From contig CALUEU010000002.1 in NCBI GenBank assembly GCA_944319735.1, positions 62,001 to 126,000 on the forward strand: DNA of 64,000 bases, given 5' to 3'. The notes beneath the pieces are model-generated. The model did not search any database and had not been told where the DNA came from. It saw only the letters and a program-made list of their open reading frames with translations. Below, one piece after another: positions 21,260 to 30,043 of this stretch (within the stretch, counting starts at the first letter, position 1; every line of letters starts with the position of its first letter). The translations under genes and the position numbers were made by a program. Origin of the DNA: an uncultured Methanomassiliicoccus sp. GTDB lineage: Archaea; Thermoplasmatota; Thermoplasmata; Methanomassiliicoccales; Methanomassiliicoccaceae.

Positions 21260-22816
21260 TCAGCGCAGCTGTTTTACCATATACATTTCTCTTTTTTCAT
21301 AGCCGAGAGATTCATAGTATTTTCTTACACCAACACCGGATGTTACACGTGTGAATGAACAACCTTCGAGTAAAGCTCTTTCTTCTGCTGCATGCATCAG
21401 TTCTTTACCAGCTCCACGGTGCTGCCATTTTCCAGAAGTTCCGATAGGTGCTAATTTTCCGAAAACTTTCAACTCGCGTATGCTTGCAATATCTCCGTCA
21501 CCAGTACGAAGACGTACATAGCCGGCAAGGGCGTCATTTTCAGGAATTTTCAGAGCAATGAAGTGTTCCATTCCTCCAGATGCCTCATAGGGGATAGTCG
21601 TGAGTTCCAGATTTTCATATTGATCTTCGGTTACTCCCACATGTCCCACTTCATGACATCTTATGCACTTGCAGGAAGTGCCGTTTTTCTTCATCTCTGC
21701 TTTTACTAATTCTCTAAGGTGTCCTTTCATAACTCCTGCTTCGATTAAAGGAACGGGAATATCTCTCTGTATCCTCTGGATTCTTACCCATGGTGGCACA
21801 AATTCCTTCATTTTAGCTATGACTTTTACAGCTTCTTCTGTGGAATAAGGAGCATATTCTCCGTTTATCCACATATCATAGAGTTTAGTACCTTTCACAA
21901 CTAATGTAGGGTAAATCTTCAGCATATCAGGACGGAAATCTGGATCTTCAAATATCTTACGGAAGCACTCTATGTCTTTTTCAGGAGAAGATCCGGGTAA
22001 GCCGGGCATTATGTGATAACATACTTTCAATCCACTGCGTTTCGCTGCCAGTGTTGCGTCAATTATTTCCTGAAGCCCGTGTCCGCGATTAACAGCTCTC
22101 AATATTCCGTCATCAAGAATCTGAATTCCCATTTCAACACGGGTCATTCCCAGAGCCATTGCATTTTCAATGTTAGAATAATTCATTGCGTCTGGACGTG
22201 TTTCAATTGTCAGACCGATGCAGCGATGCGGAGCAGTCTCATTGGCATTCTGTGCTTCGACTAAAGTATCTGAATCAAAACCGTTCATCGCATCAAAACA
22301 GCGCTTTATGAACCAGTCTTGATACTCCTGCGGCCTGGATGTGAATGTTCCCCCCATGATAATCAGATCTATTTTTTCAGTTGAGTGACCGATTACTTCC
22401 AGCTGCTCCATTCTTCCAATCACCTGGTCGAATGGATCAAAGCTGTAATATTCACCCCTTCTGGCTGCCGGCTCTTTACCTGTATAGGATTGCGGAGAGT
22501 TGTTTTCTACTCCGCCTGGACAGTATATGCATTTTCCATGTGGGCATGGGGCAGGCGATGTCATTACAGCAACGGCAACTACACCTGATAATGTTCTAAC
22601 AGGCTTTCTGATTAGTATTGCTTCCACAAGAGGGCGTTCTTCATCTGTCACTTCTGATAGTATTTCTGAGTTCCTAGGAACTCCGGGTAAATTGTATTTT
22701 TTACTAACTTTAATTTTATAGTTCTGCAACTGATCCTTATCTGTTATTTCACCATCTAAGATTTTCTGGACTATCTCTCTGCAGTATTCAACCAAATTAC
22801 ACACCGACTTACTCAT
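21260..22816 (-). CDS. elp3: Elp3: tRNA uridine(34) acetyl/carboxymethyl transferase
   Basis: This 518-residue archaeal Elongator Elp3 modifies the wobble uridine of tRNA. The radical SAM domain carries the CPHGKCIYCPGGVENNSP cluster site near residue 90, followed by EPAARRGEYYSF and GRMEQLEVIGHSTEKIDL; the zinc-binding CKCIRCHEVGH lies near residue 380; the C-terminal GNAT acetyltransferase domain has GTSGKWQHRGAGKELM for acetyl-CoA and the end GVRKYYESLGYEK. Its start overlaps the stop of the upstream regulator gene by 8 bases, so the two are likely co-transcribed. A GCTGCG/CGCAGC hairpin lies across its stop codon. Confidence 0.95.
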   Translation of the reverse strand: MSKSVCNLVEYCREIVQKILDGEITDKDQLQNYKIKVSKKYNLPGVPRNSEILSEVTDEERPLVEAILIRKPVRTLSGVVAVAVMTSPAPCPHGKCIYCPGGVENNSPQSYTGKEPAARRGEYYSFDPFDQVIGRMEQLEVIGHSTEKIDLIIMGGTFTSRPQEYQDWFIKRCFDAMNGFDSDTLVEAQNANETAPHRCIGLTIETRPDAMNYSNIENAMALGMTRVEMGIQILDDGILRAVNRGHGLQEIIDATLAAKRSGLKVCYHIMPGLPGSSPEKDIECFRKIFEDPDFRPDMLKIYPTLVVKGTKLYDMWINGEYAPYSTEEAVKVIAKMKEFVPPWVRIQRIQRDIPVPLIEAGVMKGHLRELVKAEMKKNGTSCKCIRCHEVGHVGVTEDQYENLELTTIPYEASGGMEHFIALKIPENDALAGYVRLRTGDGDIASIRELKVFGKLAPIGTSGKWQHRGAGKELMHAAEERALLEGCSFTRVTSGVGVRKYYESLGYEKREMYMVKQLR

Positions 22817-23270
22817 TATTGTCGTTCGCCATTAGATCACAGAAGTGTTCTACAGTTTTTCTGTAATTCTGCATAGCCATCTGAACGTTGGCTTCAACAA
22901 AGCTCCATGCTTTGCGTAAGTCCCCAAATCTAATCTTATATCCTTTCTTAATTTTACCATCCGACTGCTCTGCAGACGCTTCTTCTAAAAGATCTAAAGA
23001 CTTGAGTTTGTTGATGTGTCTGTACACAGTAGCTTTCGTGGTTTTTAACTCATATGCGAGTTCATCGGCCGTCCACGCTTTGTGGGGATATTTCATAAAA
23101 CAATCCATGAATAAAACATAAGGTATGCTGTCGCTTGTATCTTCAGCATCACTTCTGGGCGTGTAACCTTTTGAAAGATAACCTATGTGTGTTAAAAATT
23201 CTATGGCAATATCATCTACATTGTCCAATGGTGTAAGCGGAGTGTTGCTTTCTACAATGATTGAAAACAT
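22809..23270 (-). CDS. Winged-helix transcription regulator
   Basis: This 153-residue protein has a winged-helix/HTH core at about residues 55-110: PHKAWTADELAYELKTTKA, then TVYRHINKLKSLDLLEEAS, the usual two-helix reading head of ArsR/MarR-like archaeal regulators. The C-terminal part (VEANVQMAMQNYRKTVEHF) is a helix likely used for dimerisation. It is divergent from the ABC-importer binding-protein gene, with several palindromes in the shared 210-base upstream region, so it may regulate that importer and itself. It is also linked to elp3 downstream by an 8-base overlap. Confidence 0.8.
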   Translation of the reverse strand: MFSIIVESNTPLTPLDNVDDIAIEFLTHIGYLSKGYTPRSDAEDTSDSIPYVLFMDCFMKYPHKAWTADELAYELKTTKATVYRHINKLKSLDLLEEASAEQSDGKIKKGYKIRFGDLRKAWSFVEANVQMAMQNYRKTVEHFCDLMANDNNE

Positions 23271-23480: not shown

Positions 23481-24623
23481 ATGGACAAAAGAGCAGTTCT
23501 TGCTGTGATAGTAGTTATCGCAGTTGTAGTTGTTGGAGTTGCTGGATATGTCTTCACCAGAGGAGACAGTTCTGATGCAATACAATACACAAAAATGGAT
23601 CCAAGCAAACAATTAGACGCTATCAGAGAAGGCGCAATAGATGGTGGTGTTTTGTGGGAACCTTATGCTACTGCAGCAGAAATGAGCGGGGATGCAGAAG
23701 TCGTTACATGGTCCGATGAATTTTGGAATGGTCATCCATGTTGTGTAGTTGCTGTGGATAATAAATTTGCACAAAAAAATCAAGATGCAATTATAGCATT
23801 TTTAGCAGCTCAGATCAAAGCATGGAGTTGGATAAGTGAAGCCATTGATGCTAATAGCCCTAACCATCAAACTTTAATAGATATTACAAAAAAGCATACT
23901 GGCCTAACAAATGATGAGGAAATAGTGGCGTCGTTAGAGCATATGGAGTTAACATATAAAATGAACAATGATGTCACAGATGGTGAAAGAGGTTTTGATG
24001 CATGGTTAGAGTATTATGTTGATGAGTTTATAAATCTAGATCTAATCAAAGAAAAAGACCTCAACGCAAAAGGATGTAACAATTCCAAAGAATTCATAGA
24101 TAAGATAGTTAATGGTGAATATTTGGCAAAGGCTGAAGCACTTGGCGATAACTATTCTGGATTAACTGAACCAGTCACCATGAGAATTGGACAGCTCGGT
24201 GGAGATGTACATCAATTAGCATTAGTGGTGTCTATGAGTTCAGCTGCGGGAGAAAATGGGAAAAGCATGCTAGAACAAATGAATATCAATGCAGTGAGTA
24301 ATAAAGTATACGCAGCTGGTGTAGATATAATGAATGCATTTGCTGGTGGAGAATTAGATATTGCATATGTAGGATCTCCACCTGTTATTCAATTCTCAGC
24401 TAAGCAAAGTGAATTGGATGTATCAATAATCGCATGCGCAAATACAAATGGTTCTGCTTTAATCGTGAAGAAAGGAATGTTTGATGAAAACATGTCATTA
24501 GAAGAGAAAATCAAAGGACTTAAAGGCAAAGTAATTGGCGAACCTGCTACAGGATCAATACAGCATCTAATGCTTCTATATCTTGGAGACAAATATGGAG
24601 TAGATGTATCAGCTTGGAATTAA
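23481..24623 (+). CDS. ABC importer substrate-binding protein, circularly permuted (TauA/SsuA/NrtA type)
   Basis: The 380-residue protein starts with a membrane anchor/signal (AVLAVIVVIAVVVVGVAGY). Residues ~34-225 match what is normally the SECOND half of this family (KMDPSKQLDAIREGAIDGG, then VLWEPY, DEFWNGHPCCVV and the C-terminal helices ending KIVNGEYL). Residues ~230-380 match the normal FIRST half (VTMRIGQLGGDVHQLAL, VDIMNAFAGGELDIAYVG, GSALIVKKG, LKGKVIGEPATGSIQHLM), and the frame ends exactly where the second half would normally begin (DVSAWN). So the lobes are in swapped order behind one signal. All expected segments are present once. The ligand is probably a small oxyanion, sulfonate or similar. 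The permease and ATPase genes are 2.4 kb downstream, beyond a secreted-protein gene and an IS remnant. A TATA box 27 bases upstream suggests a leaderless mRNA. Confidence 0.85.
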   Translation: MDKRAVLAVIVVIAVVVVGVAGYVFTRGDSSDAIQYTKMDPSKQLDAIREGAIDGGVLWEPYATAAEMSGDAEVVTWSDEFWNGHPCCVVAVDNKFAQKNQDAIIAFLAAQIKAWSWISEAIDANSPNHQTLIDITKKHTGLTNDEEIVASLEHMELTYKMNNDVTDGERGFDAWLEYYVDEFINLDLIKEKDLNAKGCNNSKEFIDKIVNGEYLAKAEALGDNYSGLTEPVTMRIGQLGGDVHQLALVVSMSSAAGENGKSMLEQMNINAVSNKVYAAGVDIMNAFAGGELDIAYVGSPPVIQFSAKQSELDVSIIACANTNGSALIVKKGMFDENMSLEEKIKGLKGKVIGEPATGSIQHLMLLYLGDKYGVDVSAWN

Positions 24624-24640
24624 AACACTAAACAATTAGG

Positions 24641-24658
24641 AGCTGCGTTCTAGCAGCT
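24641..24658 (+). terminator. Hairpin after the binding-protein gene
   Basis: AGCTGC and GCAGCT pair perfectly around GTTCTA, 18 bases after the stop, followed by AT-rich sequence with short T-runs. It would separate this gene from the secreted-protein gene. Confidence 0.5.
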
Positions 24659-24821
24659 TCTAGATTATTTTAATATTATAGATTTTTTTAATAAAAAAAT
24701 ATAATAATAATATTAATTAATAATAAGTATATATACTTGATCTAATATATAGGATAATATAACGCGTTGTAGTAATGTCACCACATATTTATTCAAAACT
24801 ACAGCGTTAGGGGGTTAGTAA

Positions 24822-26039
24822 ATGAAATGTGGCAAGATATTTGCGTTGGTAACTGCAATATTGATAGTTTCTGTTATGGCGCCTCTTGCATCTGCAGAGT
24901 TAACTGACAGTAATTCAATATTGAAAGATGAGAATGCTTCAGAAATTAACATCCAAAAAGATATTCAGACAAGCATATTTACAAATAATTACACAGAATC
25001 AATCAGTTCATCTTTGAACAAATATACTACAAAGATAAATAATTCAGAAAATCTTTCAGATCTTGAGTCGATATCATCCACAGAAACAATTGTTGTTATC
25101 GATGAATCTTGGACAATTGATAAAAATCAGACGACAATAGAAAAAAACATTGATAGATTAGTCAAACGTGGGAATCCAGTGGTAATCGTTGGTGATAGTC
25201 CTGAACTACTAATGAAATCTGGACAGGATCTAGGCTTTACTGGATTTTCTGAAGGAGCACAAATTTACTCCATGATTCACTCTCTAGATACAGGTGCAGT
25301 AACTTGTATAAGCGTTAGTGGTGATGAGACAATGAGCACTTCTGAGTTATTAGCTAGAGCCTATCAGATGGTTAGTGAATCGTTGGATGATGATATTGGA
25401 GCACCAGTAGGCAATCTAAGTGAACCATACAAAACATACTTTGAGAAGACCACCTCAAAAGGAATTATGGCATCAAAAACCACATATCATAAGCTATTAG
25501 GTGATAACGATCCAAATAATGATTATTATTTAGCACACTATAGATTCTCAGCAACACCCTTGGATGGTCATTCTAAAAGTAAAATGCATATCTCAAACAA
25601 TGTATCTATGACTTCTGATGGATATCCAAGTGAGCGGACTTTGTATGAGTATAAGCCTACAACTACCTCTGGTACCACAACGGTTGGAGCGGATCTTGGC
25701 GCAGCTCTAGAATGGTCAGGTAAATTTAGTGCTGGTGTTAACATTGGTATAAATTGGTCACACTCATACTCTGATGTCACTGTGATTGATAAATCACTAC
25801 CTGGAAGCGAATATTTTAGACTAAATTATGACATAGATGAGTGTACAAACGCTGGCTATAATACACTTACTGTTGAACCAGGAATAATTATTTGTTCACC
25901 AGTAAACAGTAACGGGAGTAGTTCGTGCGATGTAACTGACTTATACTTAGCAGAATTTTGCGATGTTGTATGGCATGGAAAGTGGCACAATAATTTTACG
26001 GAAGAGACTGCTCTTCAAGTAGTATTGTTTTACCCGTGA
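24822..26039 (+). CDS. Secreted protein of unknown function (405 aa)
   Basis: I do not recognise the family. The first ~25 residues are a typical signal peptide (FALVTAILIVSVMAPLASA). The N-terminal half is rich in Asn/Ser/Thr with several N-x-S/T sites; residues ~85-185 look like an alpha/beta unit (TIVVIDESW, NPVVIVGDSPELLMKS). The C-terminal ~180 residues look all-beta with alternating polar and aromatic strands (VGADLGAALEWSGKFSAGV, INWSHSYSDVTV), reminiscent of secreted beta-sandwich or pore-forming folds, but this is an impression only. GGGGGT about seven bases before the ATG supports the start. It lies between the parts of an ABC importer and ends in a strong terminator, so it is its own unit and possibly acquired. 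Confidence 0.72.
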   Translation: MKCGKIFALVTAILIVSVMAPLASAELTDSNSILKDENASEINIQKDIQTSIFTNNYTESISSSLNKYTTKINNSENLSDLESISSTETIVVIDESWTIDKNQTTIEKNIDRLVKRGNPVVIVGDSPELLMKSGQDLGFTGFSEGAQIYSMIHSLDTGAVTCISVSGDETMSTSELLARAYQMVSESLDDDIGAPVGNLSEPYKTYFEKTTSKGIMASKTTYHKLLGDNDPNNDYYLAHYRFSATPLDGHSKSKMHISNNVSMTSDGYPSERTLYEYKPTTTSGTTTVGADLGAALEWSGKFSAGVNIGINWSHSYSDVTVIDKSLPGSEYFRLNYDIDECTNAGYNTLTVEPGIIICSPVNSNGSSSCDVTDLYLAEFCDVVWHGKWHNNFTEETALQVVLFYP

Positions 26040-26060
26040 GCTTTTCGCTCACATTTTTTT
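26036..26060 (+). terminator. Strong hairpin plus T-run terminator
   Basis: GTGAGC and GCTCAC pair around TTTTC, followed by ATTTTTTT. The TGA stop of the secreted-protein gene is inside the 5' arm. This is the clearest terminator in the accessory stretch. Confidence 0.75.
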
Positions 26061-26091
26061 ATATATTATTTCTTAGCTACATATTATTAAG

Positions 26092-26731
26092 TGTCTTATC
26101 AGGAGTCTTCGTGACGCCGATCATAATACTGCCTCAATTGGTTTAAAATCTGCTAAGTAAACATCACTGGGAATCTTCATATTCAGAGTGGAATGTGGTC
26201 TCTTAGAGTTGTAGAACTCTATGTACTCCAAAAAGCCTTTTTTAGGAATCATCAGTTCATGTTTGACACACGTCTCATAAACATACTGATGAGATACATT
26301 TGTTCCGTCAGAACGAAGCATCACCGCTAACTTCTGAGATCCCATGCATGAATATGCTTTCTTAATATCCAATACGTCCTGAATGAAGTGATTCTTATCA
26401 TGAATCTTGTGGGGTCTTCGAGACTCAGAAGCAAGAGCTTTCTTTATTCCTCTCAGAAGCAGCTTTTTCTTCATCGGTATGATGAATTCTGACAGCCTGT
26501 GACACCATTTGCATACAAACCCTACGCTGACGTCAAGAACATCAGCGATTGTCTGCATGCTTCTGCCTTCAGACCGTAGCATTACAACGCTGTATCGCTT
26601 GTTCCGCCACTTGTTCTCATCAAAGCTACCTTTATGTACAGCTGAAGCTGTACTCCTCATGGAGTTTCTTTTCGACATTCTTATCACTTGGCGAAAAGAC
26701 TCCACTTCTTTTAACACATCATGTCAAGACA
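26092..26731. mobile_element. Internally deleted insertion sequence (about 640 bp)
   Basis: The element is bounded by imperfect inverted ends that both begin TGTCTT: TGTCTTATCAGGA at the left and, on the other strand, TGTCTTGACATGA at the right. It encloses a minus-strand transposase reading frame that lacks the DDE core. No clear target duplication was found at the two flanks. It sits between the secreted-protein gene and the ABC permease, so it interrupts what is usually a compact importer operon. Confidence 0.6.
26121..26717 (-). pseudogene. IS3/IS481-type transposase with catalytic core deleted
   Basis: The 198-residue frame has the N-terminal helix-turn-helix region (RYSVVMLRSEGRSMQTIAD, then VLDVSVGFVCKWCHRL) and the second DNA-binding segment MGSQKLAVMLRSDGTNVSH, QYVYETCVKHELMIPKK. 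It then jumps straight to the extreme C-terminus of the integrase fold (EYIEFYNSKRPHSTLNMKIP). The ~130-residue DDE catalytic domain that should lie between is missing, yet the frame is intact. It cannot catalyse transposition but could still bind ends, or be moved in trans. Confidence 0.72.
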
Positions 26732-27001: not shown

Positions 27002-27823
27002 ATGGCTCAAGAATATTTGACTACTCCGATCAATAAAATACAGAGAGATAAATGGAAAGAGCATATCATAAAACTCGGATATATCGCTATATCTATAATT
27101 GCACTCATAGTGACATGGTGGGCAATTGCAGTGATTGTTGATAAAACATATTTCCCAACTCCACCAGAAGTATTTGAGGCTTTGATTCAATCATTTGACA
27201 ACGTTCCAGGAATTGGGTTGTCAATGTCTACCCAGCTATTTTCAAGTCTTGAAAGGTTTGTATTTGGCTTCTTACTTGCATTAATCACCGCAGTGCCACT
27301 TGGATTACTGTTGGGTCACTCAAAGCGTGCAGAGATGCTATTTACACCAGCAATAGAGATCATAAGGCCAATCCCACCAATGGCTTGGGTACCTCTATTC
27401 TTTCTAGCTTTTGGAGTGTTTTTTGGACCAATACTGACTATATTTATCGGAGCGTTTTTCCCAATATTGTCCAATGTAGTATTTGGAGTTAAGAGTGTTG
27501 ATCAAAATTTAATTGATGCTTCTAAAACATTTGGAGCCAGCAGATTGCAAACATTTTCAAAAGTAATTTTTCCATCAACAATACCGCATATGATGACTGG
27601 AATATCTGTAGGTCTTGGAATCGGATGGATGTGTATTGTTTCTGCGGAAATGATCGGCGCTAAAGGTGGTGGATTAGGATTTATAATTCAGTCATGCTAT
27701 AGCTTAAGTCTCTACGATTATATGTTCGCAGGAATGGTAATGGTAGGAATATTAGGAATTCTTACGGCACTATTTGGAAAATTCATAGAGAATGAGGTGG
27801 CAAAATGGATGGGGATGAAGTAA
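27002..27823 (+). CDS. ABC importer permease (TauC/SsuC type)
   Basis: This 273-residue inner-membrane permease has about six helices and the cytoplasmic EAA loop that contacts the ATPase ([20 protein letters not shown], then [19 protein letters not shown]). [12 protein letters not shown] near residue 57 and [19 protein letters not shown] are typical of the taurine/sulfonate/nitrate group. It overlaps the ATPase gene by 19 bases. The matching binding protein is the permuted one at 23481-24623, now separated by an IS remnant and another gene. Confidence 0.92.
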
Positions 27824-28578
27824 TCCTGAGTATGAAGGATATTTACAAAGAATATCCTAAGGATGATGAAATCCTGCAAGTTTTGGATGATATAAGTTTC
27901 GATGTAAAAGAGGGAGAACTTGTATGCGTCCTAGGCCCATCCGGGTGTGGAAAAACCACCTTACTCAGAATTATAGCTGGTCTGGTAGACAAAACATCAG
28001 GCAGTATTATCGTAGACGGAGAAGAAGTCACTGGACCAGGACCAAACCGCGGAATGGTATTCCAAGACTTTGCATTGTTTCCCTGGAGAACTGTACAGAG
28101 AAATGTAGAATTCGGATTAGAAATCAAAAAAATCCCTGCAGAAGAAAGAGCGAAAATTGCCACTGAATACATACATTTAGTTGGTCTAGGTGGGTTTGAA
28201 AAGTCTCATCCTTCTGAATTATCAGGTGGAATGAAACAAAGAGTTGGAATTGCCAGAGCTCTTGCAAACAATCCGCACATACTGTTGATGGATGAACCGT
28301 TTGGAGCACTAGATTCTCAGACTAGGAATCAGATGCAGACTGAGCTGCTTAGGATTCAAGATGAGACTAAGAAAACAATTATTTTCATCACTCACTCAGT
28401 AGATGAGTCGGTATTCCTTGCAGACCGCATTTTGATCTTGAGTGCAAGACCTGGCCGCATAGTAAAAGAATATAAGATTGATTTACCAAGGCCGAGAGAC
28501 AGGGGCGATTCAGACTTCATTACAATTAGAAAATCAATCTTGTCTGATCTAGAACAGCAACGGAAAGACCTTCTTTAA
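27805..28578 (+). CDS. ABC importer ATP-binding protein (TauB/SsuB type)
   Basis: This 257-residue ATPase powers the permease above. It has Walker [18 protein letters not shown] near residue 43, Q-loop [11 protein letters not shown], signature [15 protein letters not shown] and Walker [13 protein letters not shown], then the H-loop [14 protein letters not shown]. The C-terminal [20 protein letters not shown] is typical of the nitrate/sulfonate/taurine group. Its stop overlaps the end of the convergent HTH gene by 4 bases. Confidence 0.95.
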
Positions 28579-29096
28579 AAGGTCTCATCTGCTGCCCTGC
28601 CAATTGCTTTTAAGATACTTTCTCTTGGAATTACAATAGAAACTGGTATCGTAAGAATTTTTTCGATGGTAGGGGCCACGATAGGAGCGCAGACAATTGC
28701 AAGGGCCCCGTCACGCTCGGCCATGACTGCAGCGATGATTGCATCTTCCATGCTGTTTGCAGGATACTCCTTAACCAAAATTTCACGGCCATCTATCTTG
28801 ATTATTCTCTCTTCTATTTTATTCAAAACAGGTCGTGCAGCAATGACTGCTATAAAGTTTCCATAGGGCTTGGTTTCAATCCTGCGTATTGCCCGTATAA
28901 TCTCCCTGACTGTACGAAGATTTGGCTCTCTGGATTCACTCATTAATTTATAGATGGTAGATGTGGATAAGCCAGTTTTAGAACAGAATTCATTGACACT
29001 CATCTGAAGGTCTTCTTCCAGAATCTTCTTCAGGGAATTTCTGAAACCCCCTTCTTCCCTCACAATTCCTGCCATAAGCTCGCTTTCAAGAGACAT
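28575..29096 (-). CDS. HTH (XRE-like) regulator with C-terminal ligand-type domain
   Basis: About 173 residues. The N-terminal half carries an [43 protein letters not shown]. The C-terminal half ([18 protein letters not shown], then [33 protein letters not shown] in two parts) looks like a small alpha/beta sensing domain found in archaeal regulators of unknown ligand. I use the ATG at 29096, five bases before the thioredoxin reductase stop; a longer frame to 29138 would overlap that gene. It may be co-transcribed with trxB. Confidence 0.78.
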
Positions 29097-29100
29097 TGTA

Positions 29101-29985
29101 TCACTTCGTTGCAAATTTAGCAGCATTGTCGCCGGCAATACAGCCCTGTCCTACTGCCCTAGCTACTTGATAGGGTTTACCTGTCACATCACCACAGGCG
29201 TAAACTCCGTCCAATGAGGTTTTACAGTCTGCATCAACGGGTATCCTTCCGTCAATATCAGGCATAATGTCGAGATCAAGGGCCAATTCCATTGATCCTT
29301 TGGCACCGAGTGCGATAAAAACTCCATCCAAGATCAGGTTGCTACCATCTTCGAATTTAATTCCTGTAACTCTATTATTCCCGGTAATTTCCACCACTTT
29401 CTTATCAATTAACTTAATTGAAGTTTGACTTACTTTATCCAACATATGTTGAGACACTGATCTGGAAGGAGAGATCCAATAGACTTCTGAAGCATATTTA
29501 GACAATAGTATTGCAGATTCTCCAGCTTCGCTTCCGTCTCCCACTACACCAACTATTTTATTTTTATAAAAACCAGCGTCGCATGAAGCACAATAAGAAA
29601 CACCTTTGCCAAAGAACTCCTTTTCTCCTGGGGCACCCAGTTTTTTACGAGATACTCCCACTGCTAAGACCACCGATTTAGAAAGGATGGATTTTCCATT
29701 GTCGGTGTTTACTACAAAACCATCTTCCTTTTTCTCAAGAGATGTAACTTCTTCTTCAAGAAATACGGTGCCGAAAGTCTTCGCCTGTTCTAAACCTGTG
29801 TTTAAAATATCTTGTCCAGTTGCAGATTGTATACCAAAATAATTTTCAACGTCTGCTTTCCAAAGTGCAGATTCTGTTAACTTCCCGATGAGGGTAACTT
29901 TTGCTTTTCTGCGTGAAGCATGGATGGCTGCTTGAAGTCCAGCCGGGCCTGCTCCAATGATCGTTACATCTGCTATGGAGTCCAT
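29101..29985 (-). CDS. trxB: Thioredoxin reductase
   Basis: This ~294-residue flavoprotein has an N-terminal FAD motif (VTIIGAGPAGLQAAIHASR), the redox-active SYCASCDAGFYKN near residue 130, the NAD(P)-site VGVVGDGSEAGESAILL and the C-terminal GVYACGDVTGKPYQVARAVGQG. It transfers electrons to the thioredoxin encoded next to it. The start at 29985 is preferred: a TATATTATA box at about 30006-30014 gives a leaderless transcript, while the longer frame to 30018 runs through the promoter. The nucleotide site lacks the usual NADPH-type arginines in an obvious form, so donor specificity is open. Confidence 0.92.
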   Translation of the reverse strand: MDSIADVTIIGAGPAGLQAAIHASRRKAKVTLIGKLTESALWKADVENYFGIQSATGQDILNTGLEQAKTFGTVFLEEEVTSLEKKEDGFVVNTDNGKSILSKSVVLAVGVSRKKLGAPGEKEFFGKGVSYCASCDAGFYKNKIVGVVGDGSEAGESAILLSKYASEVYWISPSRSVSQHMLDKVSQTSIKLIDKKVVEITGNNRVTGIKFEDGSNLILDGVFIALGAKGSMELALDLDIMPDIDGRIPVDADCKTSLDGVYACGDVTGKPYQVARAVGQGCIAGDNAAKFATK

Positions 29986-30043
29986 CAAAATATGAAAAGA
30001 TAAGTGTATATTATACACTTGTCCTTGATTTTTTACAAATAGG

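What the first reader, a model, noticed from the sequence alone, without database searches (positions are those of the whole stretch)
23481..24623. A circularly permuted ABC substrate-binding protein
The protein has the two halves of a TauA/SsuA/NrtA-type binding protein in swapped order behind a single signal anchor. Residues ~34-225 are the usual C-terminal part (GAIDGGVLWEPY, HPCCVV), residues ~230-380 the usual N-terminal part (VTMRIGQLGGDVHQLAL, VIGEPATGSIQH), and the stop falls exactly where the C-terminal part would normally begin. All parts appear once, so it reads as a permutation by tandem duplication and trimming, not a truncation. Natural permutation in this family is unusual; an IS remnant lies 1.5 kb away and could be linked to the rearrangement.
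Basis: partly seen in the sequence, partly recalled or inferred. Interest (0 to 1): 0.82.

Follow-up and report, generated by a model that had tools for sequence, protein, structure and literature searches.

The report
Circularly permuted archaeal transporter-binding protein family
This methanogen gene encodes a nutrient-binding protein whose two halves are in swapped order; the swap is not an error but an old feature shared by a large protein family, and in relatives the same gene slot also holds other rotations and fused double copies, which shows how proteins become 'rotated' in evolution.

Summary
Window 23481-24623 (+) encodes an intact 380-residue SsuA/TauA/NrtA-type substrate-binding protein in the order anchor, C-part (residues 33-218), N-part (233-374). 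Pfam, NCBIfam and PDB sequences align as two stretches in swapped order. AlphaFold gives one confident domain (pLDDT 93, pTM 0.89).

The interpretation needs changing. This is neither a local accident nor an assembly error. The same order occurs in over 100 distinct proteins from Methanomassiliicoccales and other Thermoplasmata, Archaeoglobales, Methanoperedens and Bacillota. Nothing links it to the nearby IS remnant.

The surprise lies in the relatives. In Methanomassiliicoccales one conserved slot (Elp3, HTH, binding protein, permease, ATPase) holds three rotations: C-N in most genomes, canonical N-C in three, N2-C-N1 in Methanomethylophilaceae. It also holds a fused C-N-C-N; fused N2-C-N-C-N1 doubles occur in Methanomethylophilaceae. 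Such doubles are the intermediates predicted by 'permutation by duplication'.

Whether the three N-C cases are reversals or retained ancestors is unresolved (AU p 0.43-0.52). The ligand is unknown; a small organosulfonate is my best guess. A permuted binding protein of another class (TpMglB-2) is known; I found no report for this family.

The parts
23481..24623 (+). Circularly permuted substrate-binding protein gene (380 aa, order anchor - C-module - N-module)
23481..23564 (+). N-terminal hydrophobic anchor (residues 1-28)
   Evidence: Sequence; predicted helix 3-24
23577..24134 (+). C-module (residues 33-218), the usual C-terminal part; WEPY and HPCC lie here
   Evidence: Module HMM; NMT1_2 profile 152-240
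23733..23744 (+). HPCC motif (residues 85-88), invariant in 55 C-N proteins
24135..24176 (+). Linker joining the ancestral C- and N-termini (residues 219-232)
   Evidence: Between the module matches; inference
24177..24602 (+). N-module (residues 233-374), the usual N-terminal part
   Evidence: Module HMM; taurine_ABC_bnd profile 27-124 at 270-374
24636..24663 (+). Terminator-like hairpin after the binding-protein gene
   Evidence: Consensus scan only
27002..27823 (+). ABC permease (TauC/SaoP-like)
   Evidence: syntenic cluster 1
27805..28578 (+). ABC ATPase (SaoA/TauB-like)
   Evidence: syntenic cluster 2
21260..22816 (-). Elp3-like protein, conserved upstream neighbour of the slot
   Evidence: Cluster 4; Elp3 name from reading the sequence, not scanned
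22809..23270 (-). HTH regulator, conserved upstream neighbour
   Evidence: Pfam HTH_20; cluster 5
28575..29138 (-). HTH regulator, conserved downstream neighbour
   Evidence: Pfam HTH_3; cluster 3
29101..30018 (-). Thioredoxin-reductase-like protein, conserved downstream neighbour
   Evidence: Cluster 7; name from reading the sequence, not scanned
24822..26039 (+). Inserted ORF (405 aa) with paralogues in this genome, not part of the conserved slot
26121..26717 (-). Transposase remnant inside the operon
   Evidence: HTH_23 below cut-off; partial DNA copies elsewhere in the genome

Best explanation
The gene encodes a membrane-anchored, two-lobed (type II, SsuA/TauA/NrtA-like) substrate-binding protein of an ABC importer, in circularly permuted form. 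The ancestral N- and C-termini are joined by a linker (about residues 219-232), and the new termini lie between the helix at 360-371 and the strand at 34-38 (order shown by sequence; positions from the predicted structure). It most likely binds a small anion, perhaps an organosulfonate, and hands it to the permease and ATPase encoded at 27002-28578 (inferred; ligand unknown). The permutation is old and shared by a large subfamily (shown). It most likely arose by in-frame tandem duplication and trimming (inferred; fused doubles exist in relatives). In Methanomassiliicoccales the same gene slot carries more than one rotation: C-N and N2-C-N1 are separate rotations, and whether the N-C cases are reversals is open.
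For: Swapped two-stretch matches to Pfam, NCBIfam and PDB sequences. Confident single-domain models for C-N and N2-C-N1, the latter matching 3un6, NrtA, SsuA and TauA. The same order in 118 distinct proteins, with an HMM-independent motif order. Conserved slot with different rotations. Precise break points. Fused doubles. Neighbouring permease and ATPase.
Against: No experimental structure or binding data. No non-sequential structural alignment could be run. The observed doubles repeat already permuted units, so they are not proven ancestors. The ligand evidence is indirect and varies between lineages. The window's gene is separated from its permease by an insertion and is on a long branch.
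Confidence: 0.9

Rival explanations
1. Assembly or binning error that swapped the two halves.
For: The genome is a 21-contig draft.
Against: The same order occurs in over 100 distinct proteins, including long contigs and chromosome-level records such as CP070748 and CP070751. The gene is mid-contig (contig 316,909 bases) with conserved neighbours on both sides.
Confidence: 0.01
2. The three N-C proteins of Methanomassiliicoccales keep the ancestral order, and C-N arose once inside or near this order and then spread to Archaeoglobi, Methanoperedens and Bacillota. There was no reversal.
For: AU tests do not reject N-C grouping with the canonical outgroup (p 0.517; p 0.432). Fewer permutation events are needed.
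Against: Free trees place the three inside the C-N group. The permease and ATPase tree puts them with C-N congeners. It requires transfer of C-N to several phyla and slot replacement in most genomes.
Confidence: 0.4
3. The window copy is a decaying or repurposed gene that no longer serves the transporter.
For: Longest branch in the order (1.44). An inserted ORF, IS remnant and terminator-like hairpin lie between it and the permease. Relatives L036 and L038 show that such proteins can be repurposed as long surface-type proteins.
Against: Intact frame; all residues invariant in 55 relatives are kept; permease and ATPase open frames match their families.
Confidence: 0.12

Closest known systems
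SsuA / TauA / NrtA substrate-binding proteins (Pfam NMT1_2 PF13379; NCBIfam TIGR01728; PDB 6ssy, 2x26, 2g29, 3un6)
   Same: Both halves are homologous; cognate TauC/TauB-like permease and ATPase; exported and anchored.
   Different: Halves in swapped order; scores below the NCBIfam cut-offs; CC of an HPCC motif invariant; ligand unknown.
TpMglB-2 (Tp0684) of Treponema pallidum, proposed 'Type Ic' circularly permuted binding proteins (PMC4990184)
   Same: Natural circular permutation of an ABC binding protein, tethered to the membrane.
   Different: TpMglB-2 is a type I sugar-binding protein; the present family is SsuA-like (type II), permuted at another place, and exists in several rotations and fused doubles.
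Protein families explained by permutation by duplication, such as DNA methyltransferases and saposin/swaposin (PMC3320104)
   Same: Several rotations of one fold, with fused tandem intermediates.
   Different: Here different rotations occupy positional orthologues within one archaeal order.

Membership tests
SsuA/TauA/NrtA-type (NMT1_2) substrate-binding proteins | Sequence match to the family profile above the curated cut-off | tested here: met
   Pfam NMT1_2 75.2 bits against cut-off 24.7; NCBIfam SsuA_fam 94.6 bits is below its cut-off 163.5
SsuA/TauA/NrtA-type (NMT1_2) substrate-binding proteins | Canonical N-to-C order of the two halves | tested here: not met
   Swapped; hence a permuted variant, not an ordinary member
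SsuA/TauA/NrtA-type (NMT1_2) substrate-binding proteins | Cognate ABC permease and ATPase | tested here: met
   27002-28578 and conserved in the slot
SsuA/TauA/NrtA-type (NMT1_2) substrate-binding proteins | Two-lobed type II fold | tested here: inconclusive
   Confident model but only sequential Foldseek available, which fails on this order; the N2-C-N1 relative matches the fold
SsuA/TauA/NrtA-type (NMT1_2) substrate-binding proteins | Binds a sulfonate or related anion | not testable with these tools
   No binding data
TauA (taurine-specific equivalog) | Score above the equivalog cut-off | tested here: not met
   51.8 bits against 304.25
TpMglB-2-like 'Type Ic' permuted binding proteins | Type I (sugar-binding) ancestry | tested here: not met
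   The family matches are NMT1_2, NMT1 and SsuA_fam; the fold matches of the relative are SsuA/NrtA
TpMglB-2-like 'Type Ic' permuted binding proteins | Natural circular permutation | tested here: met
Permutation by duplication | Fused tandem copies among relatives | tested here: met
   C-N-C-N, units 52% identical; N2-C-N-C-N1, units 60-84% identical
Permutation by duplication | The double is the actual ancestor of a single rotated form | tested here: inconclusive
   Known doubles repeat already permuted units; trees do not place them as ancestors

The most novel reading that the evidence does not exclude
One positional gene slot in Methanomassiliicoccales has repeatedly re-permuted its binding protein: ancestral N-C became C-N, then N2-C-N1 in Methanomethylophilaceae and back to N-C in at least one lineage, through fused doubles. 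This would be a natural series of circular permutations, with a reversal, in one orthologous protein.
Probability: 0.5. Interest if true: 0.78.

Novelty: new variant of a known kind. Interest (0 to 1): 0.62.

Why it matters
Natural circular permutation of a binding protein is described for a type I protein (TpMglB-2) but, as far as I could find, not for the SsuA/TauA/NrtA class. Three rotations and two fused forms within one archaeal order, largely at one conserved gene slot, give a test bed for how proteins become permuted: which break points are allowed, whether doubles work, whether order can revert, and whether binding or docking changes. Profile-based annotation scores these proteins as fragments or below cut-off because of the swap.

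Tried and rejected
A genome-contig scan with the single protein found nothing; an alignment query did. Foldseek with the P0001 model gave only poor global matches (TM to the query about 0.2-0.35), as expected for a permuted chain, so it is not counted against the fold. An alignment of module fragments to the canonical L129 failed, because the C fragments were laid on the N region, and was not folded. AU tests of the ancestral order were inconclusive. A link to the IS remnant, misassembly and a taurine-specific function were considered and rejected. Coenzyme M import was considered: cysteate synthase and sulfopyruvate decarboxylase lie next to the operon in L144, but not in the conserved Methanomassiliicoccales slot, so it stays a guess. 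A permutation precedent for OpuAC-type proteins was looked for and not found in the library.

Full report
OBSERVATION. The ORF at 23481-24623 (+) is intact, 380 aa, and is the only relative found in its genome of 1.77 Mb in 21 contigs. Three independent sources place its parts in swapped order. Pfam NMT1_2 puts profile 152-240 at residues 32-122 and has a second stretch. NCBIfam SsuA_fam puts profile 125-239 at 27-149 and has a second stretch, and taurine_ABC_bnd puts its N-part (27-124) at 270-374. E. coli TauA in the PDB aligns as query 275-334 to chain 35-94 and query 34-114 to chain 130-210. With a profile of the family, the two best PDB matches are again swapped and no solved structure covers the permuted order. 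Own module profiles give C 33-218 and N 233-374.

STRUCTURE. AlphaFold with 55 natural C-N sequences gives mean pLDDT 93 and pTM 0.89. The predicted elements read as a type II binding protein opened between the helix at 360-371 and the strand at 34-38, with the old termini joined at about 219-232 (inference from the element list and the module boundaries). A sequential Foldseek search cannot follow such a chain and returned only poor matches. The model of an N2-C-N1 relative (L099; pLDDT 93, pTM 0.88), which keeps a longer run in canonical order, matches 3un6, NrtA, CmpA, SsuA and TauA, with target TM up to 0.63.

DISTRIBUTION. In the order of the window's genome (147 genomes) 132 have relatives; several dozen outside family f5 align nearly full length in the same C-N order, at about 31-40% identity. 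Record titles of the same loci show that the order is Methanomassiliicoccales and that f5 corresponds to Methanomethylophilaceae. C-N proteins also occur in other Thermoplasmata, Methanoperedens, Archaeoglobus, Ferroglobus, Methanohalarchaeum and Thermincola, in about 15 of 398 sampled Bacillota genomes and about 24 of 295 genomes of the Archaeoglobus phylum. In all fetched loci there are 118 distinct C-N proteins, 25 N-C, 10 N2-C-N1, 4 N2-C-N-C-N1 and 1 C-N-C-N. A motif-order count that does not use the HMMs gives W-H-D-S for 72 C-N records, D-S-W-H for 4 N-C and S-W-H-D for 5 N2-C-N1, i.e. three of the four possible rotations of one cycle (records of one protein can repeat in this count). 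Residues W59 E60 P61 H85 P86 C87 C88 G280 M284 G298 P301 N321 G324 S325 P355 Q361 are invariant in 55 C-N proteins.

ONE SLOT, SEVERAL ROTATIONS. Across Methanomassiliicoccales the gene lies in a conserved slot: Elp3-like, HTH, binding protein, permease, ATPase, HTH, thioredoxin-reductase-like. The window's neighbours belong to the same clusters. The slot holds C-N in most genomes; canonical N-C in L031, L032 and L033 (genomes G136, G135, G013); the double C-N-C-N in L035; and N2-C-N1 in L044 and L045, which keep part of the slot at contig ends. Other Methanomethylophilaceae keep permease and ATPase but lack the Elp3 neighbour, and several have a RamA-type corrinoid activase beside the operon. 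The breaks are clean: N2-C-N1 proteins begin with a fresh hydrophobic anchor followed by 'ITIVAQVNSEGSAIF' and end at 'GYLGSPPAILRTVNGAL'; N-C proteins begin with an anchor followed by 'VRVGYLAGDLHQ'.

HISTORY. A tree of joined modules separates canonical N-C proteins from a group of C-N, N2-C-N1 and the three Methanomassiliicoccales N-C proteins (two diverged C-N proteins, L206 and L208, fall outside). N2-C-N1 has one origin inside C-N, next to the C-N protein of G008 (100/97); the permease and ATPase tree agrees. In the free trees the three N-C proteins sit inside the C-N group, which would mean reversal. But AU tests do not reject their grouping with the canonical outgroup (p 0.517; p 0.432). 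The permease and ATPase tree places G135/G136 with their C-N congener G134 (97) and G013 inside f1 (89), although one N-C clade is not rejected there (p 0.42). The binding-protein tree rejects G135/G136/G134 as a group (p 0.0004). Either replacement at the slot or a strong change of rate is involved. Reversal against retention is left open.

MECHANISM OF PERMUTATION. Permutation by duplication predicts fused doubles (PMC3320104). They exist: C-N-C-N in L035 with units 52% identical, the first unit having lost the WEP and HPCC motifs; and N2-C-N-C-N1 in four genomes with units 60-84% identical. These doubles repeat an already permuted unit, so they show that duplication and fusion happen in this family and that one unit can decay, not that these copies were ancestors of the single forms.

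FUNCTION. The downstream permease and ATPase resemble TauC/SaoP and SaoA/TauB, so import of a small anion is the default. Hints at the ligand are weak: cysteate synthase and sulfopyruvate decarboxylase (coenzyme M synthesis) precede the operon in Mnemosynella L144, and RACo, MtaA/CmuA-like and MtrH-like proteins precede it in Thermincola L150. One rumen Methanomassiliicoccales isolate lacks coenzyme M synthesis genes (PMC4824259), which makes import of coenzyme M a need in some members. I put a small organosulfonate at about 0.4. The invariant HPCC motif, and the zinc named in the title of 3un6, the nearest structural match of the relative, leave metal or thiol binding open.

THE WINDOW COPY. 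It has the longest branch among its relatives (1.44). An ORF (24822-26039, paralogues elsewhere in the genome) and a transposase remnant (26121-26717; partial DNA copies elsewhere) separate it from its permease, with a terminator-like hairpin right after the stop. It may be drifting, but the frame and all invariant residues are kept.

NOVELTY. A permuted type I binding protein, TpMglB-2, is known (PMC4990184). Searches of the open literature found nothing on permuted SsuA/TauA-class proteins, and the NCBIfam matches are all canonical families scoring below cut-off. I class it as a new variant of a known kind. The library holds open-access papers only, so a report elsewhere cannot be excluded.

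Noticed in passing
window 24822-26717: A 405-aa ORF with paralogues in this genome and a transposase remnant are inserted between the binding protein and its permease, splitting an otherwise conserved operon.
   Followed up: partly
L036:1-2676 (-), L038:2669-5380 (-): C-N binding proteins extended to about 900 aa by repeat-rich regions (they read like fibronectin-type, PKD or beta-helix repeats; not scanned), with HPCC changed to HPSD and YPSE and no permease or ATPase beside them: probably repurposed as surface proteins.
   Followed up: partly
L206, L207, L208 (about 1483-2754, -): Diverged C-N proteins of the Archaeoglobus phylum that group with canonical N-C proteins in one tree: possibly an independent permutation, or a long-branch effect.
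   Followed up: no
L144:1711-4924 (+): Cysteate synthase, sulfopyruvate decarboxylase and a canonical-order SsuA-like protein without a signal lie directly upstream of a C-N binding-protein operon.
   Followed up: partly
L035:4297-6426 (+): Fused C-N-C-N whose first unit has lost the ligand-site motifs while the second keeps them: a double with one decaying half, in a single MAG.
   Followed up: yes
L034:2587-3682 (-), same as L141: The copy in genome G010 is split into two overlapping frames inside the N-module: a frameshift or a sequencing error.
   Followed up: no
L046, L047, L048, L050: In Methanomethylophilaceae a RamA-type corrinoid activase gene (cluster 14; one scanned) lies beside the binding-protein operon.
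   Followed up: partly
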